Shown here piece by piece: positions 8,295 through 64,000 of a stretch of DNA of 64,000 nt; within the stretch, counting starts at the first letter, position 1; every line of letters begins with the position of its first letter. Origin of the DNA: a virus; IMG/VR virus record IMGVR_UViG_3300022916_000006, positions 54,746-118,745 of that record. The stretch is one strand, 5' to 3'. The position numbers and the translations under genes are program-made. The notes below the pieces were generated by a model, which was not told the DNA's origin, ran no database searches, and was given only the letters and a program-made list of their open reading frames with translations.

Positions 8295-8498
8295 ATGAAT
8301 GAAATCACAGTACATTATTGGCATGGTACAAAATATGAAGATATCAATTTTAATCATGGAGCAGTGTTTCCGTATACAGTTCGCAAACGAAATCAAATTA
8401 TTAATGCAGTTCAAAATGCTGGAAAATCAATCATGTTAAGACCATCTGGTGATAGCTTACAGATATGGATTGATGATGGTATGTTTAGGCAGAGGTAG
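8295..8498 (+). CDS. Hypothetical protein, 67 aa
   Basis: First gene behind the 8220 element with AAAGGATAAAAATAAAATG. Pattern EITVHYWHGTKYEDINF then KRNQIINAVQNAGKSIM and LQIWIDDGMF suggests a small alpha/beta protein. Not recognised. Confidence 0.6.
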   Translation: MNEITVHYWHGTKYEDINFNHGAVFPYTVRKRNQIINAVQNAGKSIMLRPSGDSLQIWIDDGMFRQR

Positions 8499-34052: not shown

Positions 34053-34095
34053 TTGTTTCACGTTATATTTTTTTCTTAACTTTAAGCAGTTATGA
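34053..34095 (+). promoter_or_regulatory. Phage promoter-like element
   Basis: TTGTTT (34053-34058), 18 bp, TAACTT (34077-34082), then TAAGCAGTTATGAGA. Best match to the consensus; precedes the VWA giant. Confidence 0.72.
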
Positions 34096-34109
34096 GAGGA
34101 CACAAACAC

Positions 34110-36488
34110 ATGAGAAGAACAAATTTTATTTCGAACTTAATCCCACAATTCGACAATACATTAGGTACAGATTCAAAACTACAAGATATCATGTACAAAG
34201 CTAATGCATTGAAACTAATCAAAAATTTTGTAAATGTTATATCAGATAAAACTGCCATTGTAAAGTTCAATACTACTGATGGAGCTGGTGGTGGTCGTGC
34301 ATCAATAACAGATAATGGTGAATATCAAGTATATATAAGTGGTAAACTAACAAAATCTACTTTTGATCATCATGTTGGTCTTGCACTACATGAAGCATCA
34401 CATCTAAGATACTCAGATATGGATTATCTTAAAAAAGTAATGGCACATGCACGATATAAGGAACTTGATCCACAATACATAACATCAGAAATGTACACTG
34501 ATGCACTTATCAAACTAGGTGTTCGTAGATCACAATTAACTGGTGCATATAAATCAATTGTTAATATAATTGAAGATCGTAGAATCGACACGTTAACATT
34601 TGAAGATGCTCCAGGATATCGAATGTACTATGAAGCATTATATAAAAAGTTTTATAGAAGTGCAATAGTGAACACTATGTTAAAATCATCAAAATATCGA
34701 GATGAAACACTTCAAAGTTATGTCGGTAGATTTTGTTATTTGATTAATAAAAATACTGATCTAAGTGCATTGAAAGAATTAAGTACAATAAATGATATGC
34801 TTGATATATCAAACATCACTAGACTTGATACTCCAGAAAAATTATTTAAACTTGGTACTGATATTTTAAATCATATATTAACTTCATTATTCACAACTAA
34901 AGAAGAGGAAGAAAAAAAAGAAGCAGAGTTGAATAACGAATCAGATGAAAATGAATCAGATGAAAACGAATCAGATGAAAATGAATCAGATGAAAATGAA
35001 TCAGATGAAAATGAATCAGATGAAAACGAATCAGATGAAAACGAATCAGATGAAAATGAATCAGATGAAAATGATGATGATGATGAAAATGAATCAGATG
35101 AAAATGAATCAGATGAAAACGAATCAGATGAAAATGAATCAGATGAAAACGAATCAGATGAAAATGATGATGATGAAAATGATGATGATGAAAATGATGA
35201 TGATGAAAATGATGATGATGATGAAAATGATGATGATGAAAATGATGATGATGAAAATGATGATGATGATGAAAATGATGATGATGATGATGATGAAAAT
35301 GATGATGATGATGATGATGATGGAACTGAATCAGATGAAAATGAATCAGATGAAAATGAATCAGATGATGATGGTGATGATGAACTTGAAGATTTAACTC
35401 CAAAAGAGGAAAAGAGTTTATACAGATCAATGAAAAAAATGGCTGGGTTTGTACATGATACACTTCAAAAACCAACAATGTCAGAAGGAAATGCAACAGC
35501 AATAACAGCATTTTCAAAAACAAAATCTACTGAGTTAATATCTTCATTTTCAGATATTCAGATACTTGAGATTGATGATATAAAAGCTACATCAGAAATG
35601 TCAAAAGTATTTCCATTTCTATCTCAACATAAACCATCAAGATATGTTGATGCAGTTGCACAGGGATTTATATCTGGAAAACAACTATCAAAAAAATTAT
35701 CAATAATCAATGATGATAAAACTACTATTAGAATGAGAACAAAACACGGAAATATCAGTCGAAGATTATTATCAAGTGCATCATTCAACTCTAATATATT
35801 TGATCAGAAAGTTACACAAGTATATGGTAATAGTTATATTCACATATCACTTGATGGTAGTGGTTCAATGTCTGGTTCAAGATGGGTCAGTGCTTTGACT
35901 ACAGCAACAGCAATTGCAGTTGCATGTGATATAGTTGGTAAATCTCATGTTGAAATCGCAATACGAACGCAAATGGATAATTCACCAGTAAGTGCTATCG
36001 TATATAATTCAAACGTAGATAAGATTTCAAAACTTAAAAATATACTTCCAATGATTACTCTTGATAGTTATACTCCAGAAGGATTATGTTTCGAATCATC
36101 AATGAATAGAATGATGTTAAATTCTAAAAAATCTCACAATTCATATTTTATTAATGTATCTGATGGTGAACCTTATGGTTGTTATCGTACAAATACACTA
36201 TCTCTAATGAAACGAACTGCAACTAGCAGATCAAATATGGATTCTACAACTTCAGTATTTAATGGAAGAAATGCTTTAGATTTTACAAAAAAACAAGTTG
36301 ACACAATTAAAAGTCATGGATTTAAAGTACTGAGTTATTTTGTGACTAGTGGGAAATCGGATGGTGGTGTTGATGATATGAAAGATATGTTCACTCATAT
36401 GTATGGTAAAGATGCATTTTTTGGTGATGTCAAATCTACCATTATTCTTGCTAAAAGTCTTAACAACATGATCATTGGTAATAAATAA
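34110..36488 (+). CDS. CobT-like zincin/VWA protein with giant acidic repeat linker, 792 aa
   Basis: Start at 34110 (MRRTNFISNLIPQ) after GAGAGGACACAAACAC; the ATG at 34092 lies in the promoter tail. HEASH near residues 94-98 (VGLALHEASHLRYSD) is a zincin motif. About residues 275-430 are an almost pure acidic repeat of ESDEN and DDDEN units. The C-terminal VWA domain has MIDAS DGSGS near residue 581 and ends near KSLNNMIIGNK. An acidic middle plus VWA is the CobT arrangement, and the next gene is a CobS/MoxR-like ATPase, so the pair likely forms a chelatase-like remodelling machine; involvement in cobalt insertion is not implied. Confidence 0.85.
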   Translation: MRRTNFISNLIPQFDNTLGTDSKLQDIMYKANALKLIKNFVNVISDKTAIVKFNTTDGAGGGRASITDNGEYQVYISGKLTKSTFDHHVGLALHEASHLRYSDMDYLKKVMAHARYKELDPQYITSEMYTDALIKLGVRRSQLTGAYKSIVNIIEDRRIDTLTFEDAPGYRMYYEALYKKFYRSAIVNTMLKSSKYRDETLQSYVGRFCYLINKNTDLSALKELSTINDMLDISNITRLDTPEKLFKLGTDILNHILTSLFTTKEEEEKKEAELNNESDENESDENESDENESDENESDENESDENESDENESDENESDENDDDDENESDENESDENESDENESDENESDENDDDENDDDENDDDENDDDDENDDDENDDDENDDDDENDDDDDDENDDDDDDDGTESDENESDENESDDDGDDELEDLTPKEEKSLYRSMKKMAGFVHDTLQKPTMSEGNATAITAFSKTKSTELISSFSDIQILEIDDIKATSEMSKVFPFLSQHKPSRYVDAVAQGFISGKQLSKKLSIINDDKTTIRMRTKHGNISRRLLSSASFNSNIFDQKVTQVYGNSYIHISLDGSGSMSGSRWVSALTTATAIAVACDIVGKSHVEIAIRTQMDNSPVSAIVYNSNVDKISKLKNILPMITLDSYTPEGLCFESSMNRMMLNSKKSHNSYFINVSDGEPYGCYRTNTLSLMKRTATSRSNMDSTTSVFNGRNALDFTKKQVDTIKSHGFKVLSYFVTSGKSDGGVDDMKDMFTHMYGKDAFFGDVKSTIILAKSLNNMIIGNK
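34936..35370 (+). repeat. In-frame DNA repeats coding the acidic linker
   Basis: Tandem 15-base units GAATCAGATGAAAAT/C (ESDEN) followed by GATGATGATGAAAAT-type units with 2-7 GAT codons. Synonymous AAT/AAC differences and variable GAT number show active expansion and contraction. Confidence 0.9.
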
Positions 36489-50896: not shown

Positions 50897-51780
50897 GTAC
50901 AGCTATATTAAATCTAACAGATGGATTTGAACCATATTTTGAAACATCTCTACCAGAGTTTAATTATGATTCATTCATATTTAATGGGGGAGAAGTTCAT
51001 TTTAAACTTGATCTTCATAATATGGGCTATCCAGCATATGATAAAGTCATAATCACATCTAGAGCATCATGTAGTGATGATATCATGAGAATATTAATTG
51101 CTAAAGATGCATTAGAACGTACTGGTGTTAAATCATTTGAATTGATAATGCCATATATCCCATATGCTCGTCAAGATAGAGTATGCGATGAAGGTGAATC
51201 GTTTTCATTGAAAGTATTTGCTAATATAATTAATTCAGCTGAATTTGATAAAGTGATAACATTAGATGCACATTCATTAGTGGCTCCTGCATTATTAAAC
51301 AATTGTGTTGATGGTAGTAATGAATCATACATATTAAATTCGGGACATGCTACTTGGAGAATTTTACAAGATGAAACAAAAGAATTATTATTAATATCAC
51401 CAGATATGGGAGCTAATAAGAAGTCTGAAAAATTAATGAGAGATTCTGATTTCAAAGAAATGATTCAATGTGATAAGACTCGTGATCCAAAGACTGGAAA
51501 ATTAACAGGATTCAAAGTACTTGCTGATGATCTTGGTGGATTACCGTGTTTGATTGCTGATGATGTTTGTGATGGTGGTGGAACTTTTATGGGATTAGCA
51601 GTAGAATTGAAAAAGAAAAATGCTGGTAATTTATATTTGTTTGTTACACATGGGATTTTCTCAAATGGATTTGATGAATTAAAGAAACATTTTAAATTGA
51701 TTTTTTGTACTGATTCATTCAGTGATTTGAGTGACAATGATAATGTTATACAATATAAGGTTGAAATATATAATATATGA
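50893..51780 (+). CDS. prs: Ribose-phosphate pyrophosphokinase (PRPP synthetase), 295 aa
   Basis: Start at the ATGA overlap (MSTAILNLTDGFEP). Recognised by MPYIPYARQDRVCDEGESFS, the LDAHS strand, the DDLGG segment and the PRPP-binding loop CLIADDVCDGGGTF. Converts ribose 5-phosphate and ATP to PRPP. Slightly shorter than bacterial Prs (about 310 aa), as usual in phages. It stands two genes before NAMPT, which needs PRPP, so it presumably supplies NAD salvage. Confidence 0.92.
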   Translation: MSTAILNLTDGFEPYFETSLPEFNYDSFIFNGGEVHFKLDLHNMGYPAYDKVIITSRASCSDDIMRILIAKDALERTGVKSFELIMPYIPYARQDRVCDEGESFSLKVFANIINSAEFDKVITLDAHSLVAPALLNNCVDGSNESYILNSGHATWRILQDETKELLLISPDMGANKKSEKLMRDSDFKEMIQCDKTRDPKTGKLTGFKVLADDLGGLPCLIADDVCDGGGTFMGLAVELKKKNAGNLYLFVTHGIFSNGFDELKKHFKLIFCTDSFSDLSDNDNVIQYKVEIYNI

Positions 51781-52745
51781 GTAGTATTGTTTTTACACCT
51801 AAAGATAAGCATCAAGCAATGATATTGATGGGTTTACCATTATCTGGTAAGAGTACGTGGATAGAAGATAATGTAACATTTGATGATAATATAAAATTAG
51901 TATCAGCAGATGATATAAAAGAAGCTCATCCTGATTATGATCCAAATCGTGCATGTGATTTACATCAGTATAGTGTAAAAGAAGCTAGAAAATTGATGGA
52001 TGAATATTCAGATAAGAAGCTTGATATTGTAATGGATGGTGGTGGTATAAATAATAATTATACTATTGAAATAATAAAAATGTTACGAAAGAAACGATAT
52101 ACTATAGGACTGGTACATATAAAAACACCATATACTGTGTGTATTGAACGAAATAAAAATAGAACGAGAAAAGTTCCAGATGAAGATATAATATATAAAG
52201 CAATACGAGAAAATGCACAGCGACATAAATTATCGATGTATGTTGATAAAATACATGTTGTTGATTATTTTTCAAACAAACATATCTTTGTTGATATGGA
52301 TGGAGTGATTGCCGCATTATCTACACTACCAATAATAAATGGTGAGATTGATTTTGTAAATGCTGAAGTTCATAAATACTTAAAACCAGTACATCAAGTA
52401 ATTAGTAAATTAAGAGAATTACAATTTAAAGGTCATGAGTTATATATATTATCAGCCATACCAAATTCATTTGCATATACAGAAAAGAATGAGTGGTTAG
52501 ATCGACATTTCAATATTCCAATTGATCGACGATTTTTTGTAAATCAAGGTAGACATAAAGTTGAGATGTTATGTAACCTAGCTGATAAATTAAAATTAGA
52601 TAGAAAAGACGTTACGATGTTAGATGATATACATGATACGTTATATAAAGTGAAAAGCCGTGGAATGAATAGTATGCATGTATCAGAATTTCTAGCAAAA
52701 GTTTTTGTACCAATTAATAATGATAAAAATAAAAAGGATAAATAA
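51777..52745 (+). CDS. Polynucleotide kinase/phosphatase-like protein, 322 aa
   Basis: N-terminal P-loop kinase GLPLSGKST (residues 19-27) with an SADD strand after it, and a C-terminal HAD phosphatase with FVDMDGVIA (Asp173, Asp175) and TMLDDIHDT near the end. This kinase-then-HAD order and length match T4 Pnk/PseT (301 aa). It may repair tRNA or DNA 5'/3' ends; given its position between prs and NAMPT, a nucleotide-level role in NAD metabolism is also possible. ATGA overlap with prs. Confidence 0.78.
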   Translation: MSSIVFTPKDKHQAMILMGLPLSGKSTWIEDNVTFDDNIKLVSADDIKEAHPDYDPNRACDLHQYSVKEARKLMDEYSDKKLDIVMDGGGINNNYTIEIIKMLRKKRYTIGLVHIKTPYTVCIERNKNRTRKVPDEDIIYKAIRENAQRHKLSMYVDKIHVVDYFSNKHIFVDMDGVIAALSTLPIINGEIDFVNAEVHKYLKPVHQVISKLRELQFKGHELYILSAIPNSFAYTEKNEWLDRHFNIPIDRRFFVNQGRHKVEMLCNLADKLKLDRKDVTMLDDIHDTLYKVKSRGMNSMHVSEFLAKVFVPINNDKNKKDK

Positions 52746-58514: not shown

Positions 58515-58551
58515 CAGACTTGGGACAGGAGTTCGATTCTCCTATCGCCTA
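58515..58551 (+). pseudogene. 3' tRNA remnant (T arm and acceptor half)
   Basis: AGGAG-TTCGATT-CTCCT is a perfect T arm, followed by ATCGCCTA. No 5' half precedes it; its acceptor half could pair with that of the adjacent tRNA-Glu, suggesting a partial duplication or deletion. Confidence 0.65.
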
Positions 58552-58571
58552 CAAAAAAAGGATATTACATT

Positions 58572-58847
58572 ATGAACATAGCACAAAAATTTATGGCTTA
58601 TGTCTTTAAATGGCAATATGTAAGATTGATACATGATTATCGTATGAATCAACCAGATTTAATTAGACGTGCGTATTCTATCGATGATAATTGGTTTGCT
58701 AATCCATATTTACCAAGTACAAGAGTACATTTAACATCTACTGGTACAGTATATAAAGGTAGATATATTATTGATTCTGTGAATTATGCTAGTTATATTG
58801 ATAGTTGGGAGCCAATTACAAAAGGTATGATTGCGTTGTATTTATGA
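58572..58847 (+). CDS. Probable divergent MKYYI-ELVA family protein, 91 aa (block 10)
   Basis: Start at ATG 58572 (MNIAQKFMAYVFKW), after AAAAAAGGATATTACATT; the longer frame reads through tRNA sequence. The N-terminus is unlike the family, but SWEPITKGMIALYL and an ATGA end fit. Middle: DDNWFANPYLPSTRVHL, YKGRYIIDSVNYASY. Possibly a distinct gene at the block head. Confidence 0.62.
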   Translation: MNIAQKFMAYVFKWQYVRLIHDYRMNQPDLIRRAYSIDDNWFANPYLPSTRVHLTSTGTVYKGRYIIDSVNYASYIDSWEPITKGMIALYL

Positions 58848-59062
58848 AATATTGTATTTACGATATAGTCAATGAGAAATATCATACCAAATATGGTAAA
58901 ATGTTTAATTATAAACATTGGCATGATGAATTGACGAGTGATGTACAATTGTTTGATTCATATGAAGATGCATTTGATCATTTAAATCATTGTGATATGG
59001 ATGATATAGTAACAATGATAAAAGAAGTAACAGATGCAGAAGCGGTGATAATGTTATTATGA
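58844..59062 (+). CDS. MKYYI-ELVA family protein, 72 aa
   Basis: MKYCIYDIVNEKYHTKYG start at the ATGA junction, KHWHDELTSDVQLFDSYEDA centre, EVTDAEAVIMLL end. The 'W...L.SDV.LFDSYEDAF' core is shared by the next copies of this block. Confidence 0.85.
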   Translation: MKYCIYDIVNEKYHTKYGKMFNYKHWHDELTSDVQLFDSYEDAFDHLNHCDMDDIVTMIKEVTDAEAVIMLL

Positions 59063-59280
59063 AATATTATATATATGATAACAAAGTAAAATTATATTTT
59101 AAAGAAATTGGATATTATGAAGAAGGTGAATGGTCGTATGATTTATCAATACGTGTTAGATTCTTTAATTCTAACATTGAGGCTCGAAATTACATGTTTA
59201 CGTGGTTGGAATATAAATGGTACAAACATCTAGAAGTGAAATCAATATCAGATGCAGAATATATTGTAAGAATATTATGA
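59059..59280 (+). CDS. MKYYI-ELVA family protein, 73 aa
   Basis: MKYYIYDNKVKLYFKE start, EGEWSYDLSIRVRFFNSNIEA centre, SISDAEYIVRIL end. The WYKHLEVKSISDAE strand matches 59277 (WYRDLEIRSISESA). Confidence 0.86.
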   Translation: MKYYIYDNKVKLYFKEIGYYEEGEWSYDLSIRVRFFNSNIEARNYMFTWLEYKWYKHLEVKSISDAEYIVRIL

Positions 59281-59531
59281 AATATTATATGAAATATTAT
59301 ATATATGATCGAGATGATCCTGAGGAAGTATATTATAATAAGTGTGATATCGATGATCGTAATTCAATGTTCCCCTCAAGGTGGTCCAATAAAATTACAA
59401 GTGAACTTAGATTATTTGATTCATATGAAGATGCTTTTAACTACTCACAACAATGGTCTGATAATATATGGTATCGTGATTTAGAAATAAGATCAATATC
59501 AGAATCAGCGTTTGTGGCAACCATATTATGA
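59277..59531 (+). CDS. MKYYI-ELVA family protein, 84 aa
   Basis: MKYYMKYYIYDRDDPEE: the start sequence ATGAAATATTAT is duplicated, giving a doubled MKYY. PSRWSNKITSELRLFDSYEDA centre, SISESAFVATIL end. A longer frame from inside the previous gene is not used. Confidence 0.86.
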   Translation: MKYYMKYYIYDRDDPEEVYYNKCDIDDRNSMFPSRWSNKITSELRLFDSYEDAFNYSQQWSDNIWYRDLEIRSISESAFVATIL

Positions 59532-59773
59532 AATATTATATAGTGGATAAGTATGAGGATGTAACTTCAATATATTATATAGGAAACCATCGTTGGTATT
59601 CTACATTAAGTAATAATATAAAATTATTTACAACTAGATATTATGCAAAAAAATATATTACATTGAATCTTAATGTTGTGCATCATATCTTTTATAATGG
59701 GATCATACATGGGAATGGTTGCTATGTGATAAAATCAATATCAGATGAAGAAGCTGTAATAACAAAATTATAA
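59528..59773 (+). CDS. MKYYI-ELVA family protein, 81 aa (last of block 10)
   Basis: MKYYIVDKYEDVTSIYYIG start, HRWYSTLSNNIKLFTTRYYA centre, SISDEEAVITKL end. TAA stop only eight bases before tRNA-Leu(CAA), so mRNA and tRNA must be separated by processing. Confidence 0.85.
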   Translation: MKYYIVDKYEDVTSIYYIGNHRWYSTLSNNIKLFTTRYYAKKYITLNLNVVHHIFYNGIIHGNGCYVIKSISDEEAVITKL

Positions 59774-60708: not shown

Positions 60709-60740
60709 GGGTGCGTAGCTCAGCTTGGTAGAGCATTATT
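60709..60740 (+). tRNA. Split tRNA 1, 5' half
   Basis: GGGTGCG acceptor half followed by a normal D arm (TAGCTCAGCTTGGTAGAGCA) and then unrelated sequence. Its acceptor half pairs 7/7 with CGCACCT at 61771-61777. Confidence 0.75.
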
Positions 60741-60766
60741 GTTTTTAGTTTTTTGAAATATTAAAA

Positions 60767-60838
60767 TGGTCCATAGGTTAACTGGTAAACCAAATGACTT
60801 TTAATCATTAATTCTCAGTTCGAGTCTGAGTGGGCCAA
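60767..60838 (+). tRNA. tRNA-Lys(UUU), complete, inside split tRNA 1
   Basis: Acceptor TGGTCCA/TGGGCCA, anticodon arm AATGA-CTTTTAA-TCATT, T arm with TTCGAGT (CTCAG/CTGAG). Confidence 0.92.
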
Positions 60839-60904
60839 CTTAAATAAATTTTTAATCAAAAAACATAGGTTCGACTATATTTATTAGTATAGGAGAATTT
60901 ATAA

Positions 60905-61732
60905 ATGAAGAAATGTAAAAAATGTGGTGATGAATTTGAACCACGAAAAGGATTGATAAGTTATTGTTCTTTGTCATGTAGAAACACAAGAGTACATTCA
61001 GAAGAAACTAAAAAGAAAATATCAGATACGAATTCTGGTAAATATTTTGGAACATATGCATTACCAAAAAAATGTAAATATTGTGAAAAAGTATTAGTAG
61101 ATTATTTACGCAAAGCAAATACTTGTAATGGTTGTAAACCGTATGTTCTTAATATAAAATTATTTGAAAAATTAAATATACATGAAACTGATTTAGGTAA
61201 AGCTAACATATTAGCATGTGATAAATTAATTGATTTATATTATTCTAACAATAAATCATTAAGTGAGATATATGAAGAATATAATATACGTGGTAATACC
61301 ATATATTATTTTTTAAAGAAAAACGGAATACCACTACGGACAGTACGTGATGGAGTTAGATTAGCTATTGCATCTGGAAAGATAATAACACCAGTAAATA
61401 AACAATATAAGTCAGGTATACATACGACATGGTTTAATAAAGATATCTTTATGCGTAGTTCATATGAATTTAGATTTGCAACACATTTAGATAAACAGAA
61501 AGTTTTTTACCAATATGAGAAACAATTTGAATATTACTTTGATGATTTATATAGAACATATAGAGCTGATTTTTTTATTCCAGATTGGAATCTTGTGGTT
61601 GAAACAAAAAGTAGATACTATTATGAAAAAGATAAAAAAAAGATTGGAATACAAAGGCAAGCAGTGTTAGATTCAGGGTATGAATTTGTATTGTTATTAG
61701 ATGAAGATGAAATTGATAATTTTAATAAATAA
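60905..61732 (+). CDS. PD-(D/E)XK homing-type endonuclease inside split tRNA 1, 275 aa
   Basis: N-terminal zinc knuckles (CKKCGDEFEPRKG, YCSLSCRNT; CKYCEKV, CNGC) with a NUMOD3-like HSEETKKKISDTNSGK stretch; an HTH near residues 115-145 (EIYEEYNIRGNTIYYFLKKN). C-terminal nuclease: SSYEFRFATHLDKQKVFY, then YRADFFIPDWNLVVETKSRY, which supplies the D...ExK active site. Such proteins are phage homing endonucleases. Its TAA directly precedes the tRNA 3' half. GGAGAATTTATAAATG leader. Confidence 0.8.
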   Translation: MKKCKKCGDEFEPRKGLISYCSLSCRNTRVHSEETKKKISDTNSGKYFGTYALPKKCKYCEKVLVDYLRKANTCNGCKPYVLNIKLFEKLNIHETDLGKANILACDKLIDLYYSNNKSLSEIYEEYNIRGNTIYYFLKKNGIPLRTVRDGVRLAIASGKIITPVNKQYKSGIHTTWFNKDIFMRSSYEFRFATHLDKQKVFYQYEKQFEYYFDDLYRTYRADFFIPDWNLVVETKSRYYYEKDKKKIGIQRQAVLDSGYEFVLLLDEDEIDNFNK

Positions 61733-61778
61733 GGTCTTTTAAACCATTGGTCGTCGGGTTCAAATCCCACCGCACCTA
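61733..61778 (+). tRNA. Split tRNA 1, 3' half
   Basis: Starts immediately after the endonuclease TAA. GGT-CTTTTAA-ACC could be an anticodon loop (UUU, Lys) or part of a variable arm; then GTCGGG-TTCAAAT-CCCAC and CGCACCT acceptor half with A discriminator. Confidence 0.72.
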
Positions 61779-61783
61779 CAAAT

Positions 61784-61981
61784 ATGAAGTACTATATAAT
61801 ATCACATAGAGAAGATGATAAAGGTGATCCTCTAATATCTGATGCAATTGATTTAAATGAAGCAAAAGATTTATTAGCTGAAATTATGGATGCTTTTACT
61901 GGGAGTATAATTTTTCCAGATGCTACATCAGATGATTTTGAAATCGTTGATGAAAATGAAGCAGTGGCATATTTGTTATGA
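61784..61981 (+). CDS. MKYYI-ELVA family protein, 65 aa (block 11)
   Basis: MKYYIISHREDDKGDPLIS start five bases after the tRNA half, no Trp, AIDLNEAKDLLAEIMDA helix, IVDENEAVAYLL end. Acidic, compact, no ribosome binding site visible. Confidence 0.82.
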   Translation: MKYYIISHREDDKGDPLISDAIDLNEAKDLLAEIMDAFTGSIIFPDATSDDFEIVDENEAVAYLL

Positions 61982-62160
61982 AATATGTTTTAAAATATAC
62001 TATAGATGGTGAATATGTAAGTAAAGATTGTGATACTTATGTATCTAAAATGAGAGATGCTATAGTATTTGATTTAAAAGAAGATGCTGAATCTGAAGCT
62101 GGTGTGACGGAGCGTATAATCGAAATGACAGATGCAGAATATATAGTTAAAATATTATGA
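61978..62160 (+). CDS. MKYYI-ELVA family protein, 60 aa
   Basis: MKYVLKYTIDGEYVSKD start, KMRDAIVFDLKEDAESEA centre, MTDAEYIVKIL end. No Trp. ATGA on both sides. Confidence 0.83.
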   Translation: MKYVLKYTIDGEYVSKDCDTYVSKMRDAIVFDLKEDAESEAGVTERIIEMTDAEYIVKIL

Positions 62161-62530: not shown

Positions 62531-62606
62531 GCCTCAGTATCGCCTCGGATTTCTAACCCGTAGAAAGCGTAACGGACACATAAAGGTTCGAATCCTTTCT
62601 GGGGTA
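62531..62606 (+). tRNA. Atypical tRNA-Arg(UCU)-like gene lacking a D arm
   Basis: Acceptor GCCTCAG/CTGGGGT, TCGGA-TTTCTAA-CCCGT gives anticodon TCT, T arm AAAGG-TTCGAAT-CCTTT. Only seven bases separate acceptor and anticodon stem, while about 20 bases with a CCGT/ACGG hairpin sit where the variable arm should be. Total length (76) is normal. Confidence 0.6.
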
Positions 62607-62628: not shown

Positions 62629-62708
62629 ATAATAATATATTGTCTAGTAGTCAATTCCAATGACTTTAATATTTCCTATGGATGGAAAGCTAGATGATGT
62701 GTTATTAT
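62629..62708 (+). ncRNA. Structured RNA candidate in tRNA cluster (C)
   Basis: 62629-62647 pairs with 62690-62708 over 19 positions, four of them G.U on the same side, closing on TCTAG/CTAGA. Inside are two hairpins, GTCA-attccaa-TGAC and TTTCC-tatggat-GGAAA: a three-way-junction shape with no tRNA arms. Confidence 0.6.
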
Positions 62709-62729
62709 CTGAATAAAATAAAAAATTAT

Positions 62730-62762
62730 GCTGACATTACCTAAGCGGTCGACAGCAGGATT
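62730..62762 (+). tRNA. Split tRNA 2, 5' half
   Basis: GCTGACA acceptor half, D arm TTACCTAAGCGGTCGACAGC and GGATT (likely 5' anticodon strand). Its acceptor half pairs 7/7 with TGTCAGC at 63921-63927. Confidence 0.75.
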
Positions 62763-62770
62763 TATATAAT

Positions 62771-62843
62771 GCTTCTATATGCTTAACTGGAAAAGCAACT
62801 GCCTTGTAAGCAGAAGTTCGGGGTTCGGTTCCTCGTAGAAGCC
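62771..62843 (+). tRNA. tRNA-Thr(UGU), complete, inside split tRNA 2
   Basis: Acceptor GCTTCTA/TAGAAGC, anticodon arm ACTGC-CTTGTAA-GCAGA (T27/43 mismatch tolerated), T arm CGGGG-TTCGGTT-CCTCG. Confidence 0.9.
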
Positions 62844-62867
62844 CAACAAAAAAAAATTGAAAAAAGT

Positions 62868-62911
62868 AGTTCGATTTTCATTGTTGGCTTATATTTATAT
62901 ATATATATAAG
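62868..62911 (+). promoter_or_regulatory. Possible promoter of endonuclease gene
   Basis: TTCGATTTTCATTGTTGGCT then TATATTTATATATA resembles the downstream half of the TTGACT-type promoters (CTATATTTATATAT). A similar TTCGACTATATTTATTA lies before the other endonuclease gene at about 60870. Confidence 0.4.
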
Positions 62912-62926
62912 AACGGAGAATTGAAT

Positions 62927-63877
62927 ATGTATAAATGTAAATATTGTAATAAAGAATGTAAAACGTATCAGTCGTTAGGTGGTCATACAGTCAAATGTAA
63001 TGATAATCCGAAAAAAGATGAGTATATAAAAAAAGCTAATAAAGCAAAAACACACGAACGAAATGAATATGAATTTGAGTGTAAAAAATGTAATAAAATA
63101 TATAGCGTAGAATTAACTGAAAATCAATTAAAGAAAAATCAATTTAAAAAGCACTGTAGCAGAGCGTGTGCGAATAGTAGAACCTGGTCAGATGAAGATA
63201 AAGTTAAAAAAAGTATAAGTAGTAAAACATCTAATTTTGTACGAGAATCACGAGAAAATAGATGGAAAGACTATAAAAAGAAAGTAAAAAAGGTAAGGGC
63301 TAGTTCATATATTAAGGTTAAAAATCCTAAAAAGCCTGGACCTATGCGAGCCGTGAGACGTATTGTATATTGTAAACATTGTAATGTTAAATTTGAAGTA
63401 TATAATAAATCAATTCAAAAGTTTTGTTCACAGCCATGTTCGAATGATTTTAGACGTGCAAATAAATCGTATAAAAAAATGATGAGTGAACAAATGAAAT
63501 TACAATATAAAAATGGTCGTAAAATATATGGTGGGCACGACAATGTTAAGTGGTATGAATATAATGGAATTAAAGTGCACGGTACGTGGGAATTGCGAAC
63601 TTGTAAAATTTTAGATAAGTGGAAACGAATTGGTAAAATTATAAATTGGGAATATGAATCAACACTACATAGATTTCAATATGTAAATGATACTGGACAA
63701 CATACATATATACCAGATTTTGCGATTTATAATGTTGATGGTACAGTTAGTATTCTTGAAATAAAGGGATTGAAGCGTGATGATGTTGATTTAAAAACAA
63801 AATCAACATTAAAAGCTGGATATCAAATTGAAATTTGGGATGATATTAAAACAATAAAAAGATATGAGTTGGAGTAA
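62927..63877 (+). CDS. PD-(D/E)XK homing-type endonuclease inside split tRNA 2, 316 aa
   Basis: Start ATG 62927 with GGAG eight bases upstream. Three N-terminal zinc modules: CKYCNKECKTYQSLGGHTVKC (C2HC), CKKCNK with CSRACAN, and CKHCNVKFE with CSQPCSN. C-terminal nuclease: VHGTWELRTCKILDKWK, then YIPDFAIYNVDGTVSILEIK with the D...ExK residues. Same architecture as the 60905 protein with an extra finger and no clear HTH. Its TAA overlaps the 3' anticodon strand of the split tRNA. Confidence 0.8.
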   Translation: MYKCKYCNKECKTYQSLGGHTVKCNDNPKKDEYIKKANKAKTHERNEYEFECKKCNKIYSVELTENQLKKNQFKKHCSRACANSRTWSDEDKVKKSISSKTSNFVRESRENRWKDYKKKVKKVRASSYIKVKNPKKPGPMRAVRRIVYCKHCNVKFEVYNKSIQKFCSQPCSNDFRRANKSYKKMMSEQMKLQYKNGRKIYGGHDNVKWYEYNGIKVHGTWELRTCKILDKWKRIGKIINWEYESTLHRFQYVNDTGQHTYIPDFAIYNVDGTVSILEIKGLKRDDVDLKTKSTLKAGYQIEIWDDIKTIKRYELE

Positions 63878-63928
63878 TCAGGTGGATAGATAAGTTCTCC
63901 CACGTAGGTTCGAATCCTACTGTCAGCT
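63876..63928 (+). tRNA. Split tRNA 2, 3' half
   Basis: AATCA (complementary to GATT of the 5' half), a long variable region, T arm GTAGG-TTCGAAT-CCTAC and acceptor half TGTCAGC. The two halves would make a type II tRNA interrupted in the anticodon loop, so its identity is lost. Confidence 0.73.
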
Positions 63929-63946
63929 CAAATAAAAAGGAAAAAA

Positions 63947-64000
63947 ATGACTGATCTAAAAGAAAAACTAATAGCACTTGCTGTTGTAGTATTTTGTGTT
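63947..64000 (+). CDS. Membrane or exported protein, 3' end outside window
   Basis: ATG after AAAAAGGAAAAAA reads MTDLKEKLIALAVVVFCV and continues past the end; the hydrophobic run suggests a signal anchor. Confidence 0.55.
   Translation, partial: MTDLKEKLIALAVVVFCV

What the first reader, a model, noticed from the sequence alone, without database searches (positions are those of the whole stretch)
62730..63928. Split tRNA 2: the same arrangement with tRNA-Thr and a second endonuclease
GCTGACA...GGATT and AATCA...TGTCAGC again pair 7/7 in the acceptor and 4 in the anticodon stem, with tRNA-Thr(UGU) and a related nuclease inside and the stop codon overlapping the 3' anticodon strand. Two independent cases with identical order (5' half, whole tRNA, endonuclease, 3' half) point to a specific mobile-element strategy in tRNA genes.
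Basis: partly seen in the sequence, partly recalled or inferred. Interest (0 to 1): 0.8.

Follow-up and report, generated by a model that had tools for sequence, protein, structure and literature searches.

The report
Nuclease gene swaps a viral tRNA
A selfish nuclease gene has landed in the anticodon region of a phage tRNA-Thr gene and destroyed it, but it brought along a complete, different tRNA-Thr gene that reads the same codon, and the same virus population most likely still holds the uninterrupted version.

Summary
The insertion is real and is confirmed by an empty site. L018, a contig most likely from the same population, holds intact tRNA-Thr(UGU). It is identical to the window over 127 bp on each side; 1,118 bp in the window replace 10 bp (positions 25-34, tRNA numbering) of that gene. 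The 3' junction lies exactly between anticodon positions 34 and 35. The insert carries a complete but divergent (53% identical) tRNA-Thr(UGU) and a PD-(D/E)XK homing-endonuclease-like gene (HEG2) whose stop codon is supplied by the tRNA remnant. So broken gene and cargo tRNA share an anticodon; the same holds for the sister element (both Lys, UUU), whose empty site I could not find. The 5' anticodon strand is lost, so this is a dead gene with a replacement, not a functional split tRNA. HEG2 is related to phrog_15137; in Citrobacter, Acinetobacter and Aeromonas T4-like phages its relatives split tRNA(CAT) genes in the anticodon loop without net loss of tRNA sequence. Best reading: an anticodon-targeting homing endonuclease that carries a replacement tRNA, a natural 'home and rescue' arrangement. 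Cutting, and cargo resistance to cutting, are inferred, not shown.

The parts
62730..62755 (+). 5' remnant of the interrupted tRNA-Thr(UGU): GCTGACATTACCTAAGCGGTCGACAG (to position 24)
   Evidence: identical to intact tRNA-Thr in L018
62756..63873 (+). inserted element, 1118 bp, replacing 10 bp (GTCCTGACTT) of the target
   Evidence: alignment to the empty site L018
62771..62844 (+). cargo tRNA-Thr(UGU), complete, 53% identical to the target tRNA-Thr
   Evidence: ARAGORN; Rfam tRNA 50.5 bits; alignment
62865..62926 (+). leader of HEG2: hairpin that pairs the Shine-Dalgarno region, with GTTCGA..ATATTTAT motif (62869-62898)
   Evidence: motif count; fold
62927..63877 (+). HEG2, 316 aa from ATG (318 aa from TTG 62921): C2H2-like zinc finger, further Cys motifs, PD-(D/E)XK T7-endonuclease-I-like domain; phrog_15137 relative; stop TAA supplied by the tRNA remnant
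63874..63929 (+). 3' remnant of the interrupted tRNA-Thr, from G35 of the anticodon to the 3' end
   Evidence: identical to L018
60709..60735 (+). sister element: 5' remnant of an interrupted tRNA (acceptor and D arm); exact 5' junction unknown
   Evidence: sequence
60767..60839 (+). sister element: cargo tRNA-Lys(UUU)
60865..60904 (+). sister element: leader hairpin of HEG1 with GTTCGACTATATTTAT
60905..61732 (+). HEG1, 275 aa: zinc-ribbon-like N-terminus, NUMOD3, T7-endonuclease-I-like nuclease
61733..61779 (+). sister element: 3' remnant with anticodon loop CTTTTAA (Lys, UUU) and acceptor; T-stem has mismatches (partly decayed)
   Evidence: sequence

Best explanation
A homing-endonuclease mobile element sits in the anticodon loop of a phage tRNA-Thr(UGU) gene. 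HEG2 (phrog_15137 kin, PD-(D/E)XK nuclease) most likely cuts intact tRNA-Thr genes of co-infecting phages at the anticodon, and repair from the donor copies the element in. Insertion destroys the resident tRNA-Thr. The element carries its own divergent, complete tRNA-Thr(UGU) directly upstream of the nuclease, so the recipient keeps a tRNA for the same codon and the cargo should escape cutting. Shown: empty and filled alleles, same anticodon in target and cargo, loss of positions 25-34, junction at 34/35, stop codon supplied by the target, anticodon-loop insertion of relatives in other phages. Inferred: endonuclease activity, cutting at the anticodon, cargo resistance, function of the cargo tRNA.
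For: Empty site: L018rc 1-127 and 138-264 equal window 62629-62755 and 63874-64000; target lost GTCCTGACTT. The intact gene is tRNA-Thr(UGU). The cargo is tRNA-Thr(UGU), 53% identical to the target, and the only intact Thr(UGU) found in the window's contig; Lys(UUU) likewise. Both overlaps are exactly 127 bp, the largest k-mer I know JGI assemblies to use, so the two contigs look like the arms of one assembly bubble: both alleles in one population. HEG2's relatives split tRNA(CAT) genes in the anticodon loop in CkP1, Apostate and AsFcp_1; the rejoined Apostate halves are 100% identical to intact genes of sister phages. A profile of those relatives hits HEG2 in zinc finger and nuclease. The sister element repeats the plan with Lys(UUU) in Lys(UUU). 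An HNH element in L009 with a HEG1-like N-terminus restores its target tRNA-Lys by another route; empty sites L022, L023.
Against: No biochemical evidence of cutting. HEG2 has no close relative in the searched viral or genome collections, so movement of this exact element is seen only as one polymorphism. The intact allele of the Lys target was not found, so 'same isoacceptor' rests for it on the anticodon loop in the 3' remnant. The T4-like relatives carry no tRNA upstream of the nuclease inside the split gene, so cargo is not general in the family. The structure prediction of HEG2 failed (pLDDT 38).
Confidence: 0.8

Rival explanations
1. Functional split tRNA: the two remnants pair through the acceptor stem and are joined in trans or spliced, with tRNA-Thr and the nuclease mRNA as a giant anticodon-loop intron.
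For: 7/7 acceptor pairing; the contig encodes a polynucleotide-kinase-like protein.
Against: The empty site shows that positions 25-34, including the whole 5' anticodon strand, are missing, so no splicing restores the tRNA; no group I intron match; no T4-type RNA ligase found in either contig (fragments).
Confidence: 0.03
2. Passive hitch-hiking: illegitimate recombination during DNA-break repair copied a neighbouring tRNA along with the nuclease gene, and the matching anticodon is coincidence or arose because the donor break lay in an orthologous tRNA-Thr; the cargo has no rescue role.
For: Co-conversion of flanking DNA is normal in homing (PMC2988022); T4-like relatives have no cargo tRNA inside the split gene; L009, SW16-7, IME341 have other arrangements.
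Against: Same isoacceptor in both elements of the window; cargo replaces the function that insertion destroys.
Confidence: 0.15
3. Group I intron or other self-splicing intron in a tRNA gene with an intron-encoded endonuclease.
For: The anticodon loop is a classic site for group I introns in tRNA genes (own knowledge).
Against: No group I match in Rfam for the window or for CkP1, Apostate, AsFcp_1; only a short leader precedes the nuclease in the relatives and the ORF runs into or up to the 3' half, leaving no room for an intron core.
Confidence: 0.02

Closest known systems
SegB of phages T4 and T6 (free-standing GIY-YIG homing endonuclease in the tRNA gene region; PMC2988022, PMC13096335)
   Same: Nuclease gene in a phage tRNA cluster; cleavage sites mapped within tRNA genes; spreads or amplifies linked tRNA genes; hairpin over the ribosome-binding site.
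   Different: SegB is GIY-YIG and lies between tRNA genes (tRNA-Arg/tRNA-Ile); here a PD-(D/E)XK nuclease lies inside the broken target tRNA and carries a same-anticodon replacement.
phrog_15137 'endonuclease I' genes of Straboviridae and Ackermannviridae (CkP1, Apostate, AsFcp_1, IME341, SW16-7)
   Same: Same protein family as HEG2 (zinc finger plus nuclease); several split tRNA genes in the anticodon loop; hairpin leader; reading frame runs into or up to the tRNA 3' part.
   Different: They insert without net loss of tRNA sequence (tRNA(CAT)) with no tRNA upstream of the nuclease inside the split gene, or precede a complete downstream tRNA.
Mobile ORFs of fungal mitochondria (Allomyces, Glomus atp6/atp9/cox2/nad3 hybrids; PMC3630166)
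   Same: Endonuclease element that breaks a gene and brings a divergent replacement for the lost part.
   Different: There a foreign C-terminus is fused to a protein gene; here a whole independent tRNA gene is supplied.
Engineered home-and-rescue gene drives (PMC7968924)
   Same: Logic: home into the wild-type gene and supply a rescue for its function.
   Different: Engineered CRISPR system in flies; the phage element is natural and its cutting is not yet shown.

Membership tests
phrog_15137 homing-type endonucleases | sequence match over zinc finger and nuclease | tested here: met
   HEG2 vs phrog_15137 E=3.1e-9; family profile vs HEG2 E=4.8e-15 in a two-sequence search
phrog_15137 homing-type endonucleases | insertion in the anticodon loop of a tRNA gene (several members) | tested here: met
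   3' junction at 34/35 in window; CkP1, Apostate, AsFcp_1 in the anticodon loop of tRNA(CAT)
PD-(D/E)XK (T7 endonuclease I-like) nuclease | E ... D ... E-x-K catalytic pattern | tested here: met
   alignment: WE, PDF, LEIK in HEG2; YE, ADF, VETK in HEG1; sub-threshold PF05367 hits for HEG1 and relatives
homing endonuclease element | filled and empty alleles of the same site | tested here: met
   L018 against window
homing endonuclease element | site-specific cleavage of the empty allele and super-Mendelian transfer | not testable with these tools
   needs purified protein and phage crosses
functional split or trans-spliced tRNA | halves together contain a complete tRNA | tested here: not met
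   positions 25-34 missing
group I intron | conserved intron core | tested here: not met
   no Rfam match
SegB-like (GIY-YIG) | GIY-YIG domain | tested here: not met
   Pfam and PHROG scans show T7 endonuclease I/DUF1064 type domains, no GIY-YIG

The most novel reading that the evidence does not exclude
A natural home-and-rescue element: the nuclease cuts the resident tRNA gene at the anticodon and the linked, sequence-diverged tRNA of the same isoacceptor is the cut-proof rescue copy, so the element both drives and becomes indispensable. As a by-product it swaps phage tRNA-Lys(UUU) and tRNA-Thr(UGU) variants between phages, which could also change sensitivity to tRNA-cutting host defences.
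Probability: 0.45. Interest if true: 0.75.

Novelty: new variant of a known kind. Interest (0 to 1): 0.62.

Why it matters
It would show how a selfish nuclease can use tRNA genes, which are short, conserved and shared between phages, as landing sites without costing its carrier a tRNA. It gives a mechanism for the turnover and patchiness of phage tRNA clusters, and a possible natural counterpart of an engineered gene-drive design. It also names isolated phages (CkP1, Apostate, AC4, AM101, AsFcp_1) in which tRNA genes split at the anticodon loop can be tested.

Tried and rejected
HEG2 searches of viral and genome contigs found no close relative. A pattern for the Lys 3' remnant found no empty site. 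AlphaFold2 on HEG2 alone failed. Comparison of the prohibitin-like gene gave only distant relatives without the site. The leader motif as a probe found only two known loci. Lak phage loci with HEG1/HEG2 similarity showed no clear split tRNA of this kind. The two-copy tRNA records of Acinetobacter phages (AB-Navy71, PhT2) were not cargo cases by their annotation. Literature searches returned no paper whose title or abstract describes this arrangement; most subscription papers are not held, so novelty is not proven.

Full report
What is there. The window is bases 54746-118745 of a 118,745-bp virus contig and ends at the contig end. The finding lies in a tRNA cluster of an AT-rich phage. At 62730 a tRNA begins (GCTGACATTACCTAAGCGGTCGACAG); then come a complete tRNA-Thr(UGU) at 62771-62844, an endonuclease-like gene ending at 63877, and the tRNA 3' part ending TGTCAGC. 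A second element of the same order lies at 60709-61779.

The empty site. A pattern from the 3' part found one contig, L018. There the tRNA is uninterrupted: GCTGACATTACCTAAGCGGTCGACAG-GTCCTGACTT-GTAATCAGGTGG..., called tRNA-Thr(UGU) by ARAGORN. The comparison is exact: 127 identical bases end at window 62755, then 10 bases in L018 against 1,118 in the window, then 127 identical bases from 63874 to the contig end. Both shared stretches are exactly 127 bp and each lies at an end of one of the contigs. From my knowledge of metagenome assembly (k=127 is the largest k-mer of the standard JGI metaSPAdes run) this is what the two arms of a bubble in one assembly graph look like. So most likely both alleles occur in one virus population; read mapping would settle it.

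What the empty site changes. The gene lost positions 25-34, that is the 5' anticodon strand and the first part of the loop; the 3' part starts at G35. It cannot be restored by any splicing. The interrupted gene and the complete tRNA inside the insert have the same anticodon, yet are only 53% identical. The cargo is the only intact tRNA-Thr(UGU) found in the window's contig. In the sister element the 3' remnant holds the loop CTTTTAA, so the broken gene was tRNA-Lys(UUU), and the cargo is tRNA-Lys(UUU); its empty site was not found. AAA is the commonest codon of the 22 long plus-strand reading frames counted and ACA makes up half of their Thr codons.

The nucleases. HEG2 has a C2H2-like zinc finger, further Cys motifs and a PD-(D/E)XK domain of the T7 endonuclease I type; its best PHROG is phrog_15137. 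HEG1 has a zinc-ribbon-like N-terminus, a NUMOD3 motif and the same nuclease type. A profile of HEG2's T4-like relatives matches HEG2 (4.8e-15) and, in the nuclease domain, HEG1 (3.9e-7) in a two-sequence search. The motif GTTCGANT..ATATTTAT occurs twice in the window, once before each nuclease gene (0.03 expected). It forms the 5' arm and part of the loop of a hairpin that covers the Shine-Dalgarno region. Hairpins over the ribosome-binding site with a late promoter inside are described for T4 homing endonucleases, segB included (PMC2988022).

Relatives elsewhere do the same thing. HEG2's relatives lie in tRNA regions of T4-like phages. In Citrobacter phage CkP1 the gene splits tRNA(CAT)..CGGCTC | hairpin, gene | ATAACTGG..; Edwardsiella phage PEi20 has CGGCTCATAACTGG. 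In Acinetobacter phage Apostate it splits ..GGACTCAT | | ATAATCC.. (an AT is present on both sides); the rejoined 77 nt are 100% identical to intact genes of AbTZA1, Maestro, Morttis and others. In Aeromonas phage AsFcp_1 it splits ..GGCGGCTCA | | ATAACCGC... None matches a group I intron. For CkP1 the insertion is between positions 34 and 35, the place of the 3' junction in the window. Acinetobacter phage AC4 carries the gene in a tRNA allele with a different but paired T stem; PhT2 holds an intact gene 97% identical to the AC4 halves. This fits entry into different alleles. In IME341, F25 and SW16-7 a 5' fragment, the gene and a complete tRNA follow each other. In the unrelated L009 an HNH nuclease whose first 46 residues are 63% identical to HEG1 sits in tRNA-Lys(UUU); it carries a copy of the tRNA 5' end so that tRNA-Lys is complete again, and L022 and L023 are empty sites.

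Mechanism. The simplest account is homing: the nuclease cuts an intact tRNA gene at the anticodon, the break is resected, and repair from the element-bearing genome copies nuclease and cargo. Because insertion removes tRNA sequence and kills the gene, an element that carries its own tRNA of the same isoacceptor, different enough not to be cut, costs the recipient nothing. That is the home-and-rescue reading. Target, cargo, junctions and the two alleles are shown; cutting, cargo resistance and cargo function are inferred.

Compared with what is known. SegB is the closest functional precedent: it lies between tRNA genes, its cleavage sites map within tRNA genes, and it amplifies them (PMC13096335). 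Fungal mitochondrial mobile ORFs carry a replacement C-terminus for the gene they break (PMC3630166). HEG2 is by sequence a relative of phrog_15137; carrying a whole same-anticodon tRNA upstream of the nuclease is, as far as the held literature and my searches show, new. I rate it a new variant of a known kind.

Noticed in passing
L019 2787-2942 and L020 2023-2188 (Lak phages): tRNA genes whose anticodon loop holds an insert of roughly 100 nt containing its own tRNA-like acceptor and T-arm (CTCTATA..TATAGAG; CTACATAA..TTATGTAG). They look like very short introns with a nested tRNA-like structure.
   Followed up: no
window 62531-62606; L018 reverse strand, about base 8476 counted from the start of the reverse complement: tRNA-Arg-like genes (anticodons TCT and TCG) that seem to lack a normal D arm; missed by ARAGORN, the first just below the Rfam cut-off.
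   Followed up: no
window 58515-58553: Orphan tRNA 3' half (T-arm AGGAGTTCGATTCTCCT, acceptor ATCGCCT) directly after tRNA-Glu, without a 5' half found.
   Followed up: partly
L009, L010, L023: Several copies per cluster of a tRNA-like gene with fixed ends AGTCAGGTGGCGGAATGG...ACAGGTTCGAATCCTGTCCTGACT and a highly variable middle.
   Followed up: no
window 58805-59773 and 61785-62160: Series of small related proteins (about 80-100 aa, ending in ..ISDAEAVIMLL-like motifs) set between tRNA genes.
   Followed up: no
L043 2098-2860, L046 1280-2165, L048 1500-2290: Isolated T4-like phages with tRNA(CAT) genes split in the anticodon loop by a nuclease gene, with otherwise complete halves. T4-like phages are known to carry RNA repair enzymes, so whether such a transcript is ever rejoined is worth one RNA experiment.
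   Followed up: partly
window 51777-52745: Polynucleotide-kinase-like protein with a C-terminal phosphatase-like part; no T4-type RNA ligase found in this contig or in L018's contig.
   Followed up: partly
window 34092-36488: Large protein with a long acidic repeat (ESDEN, DDDEN units) in its middle.
   Followed up: no
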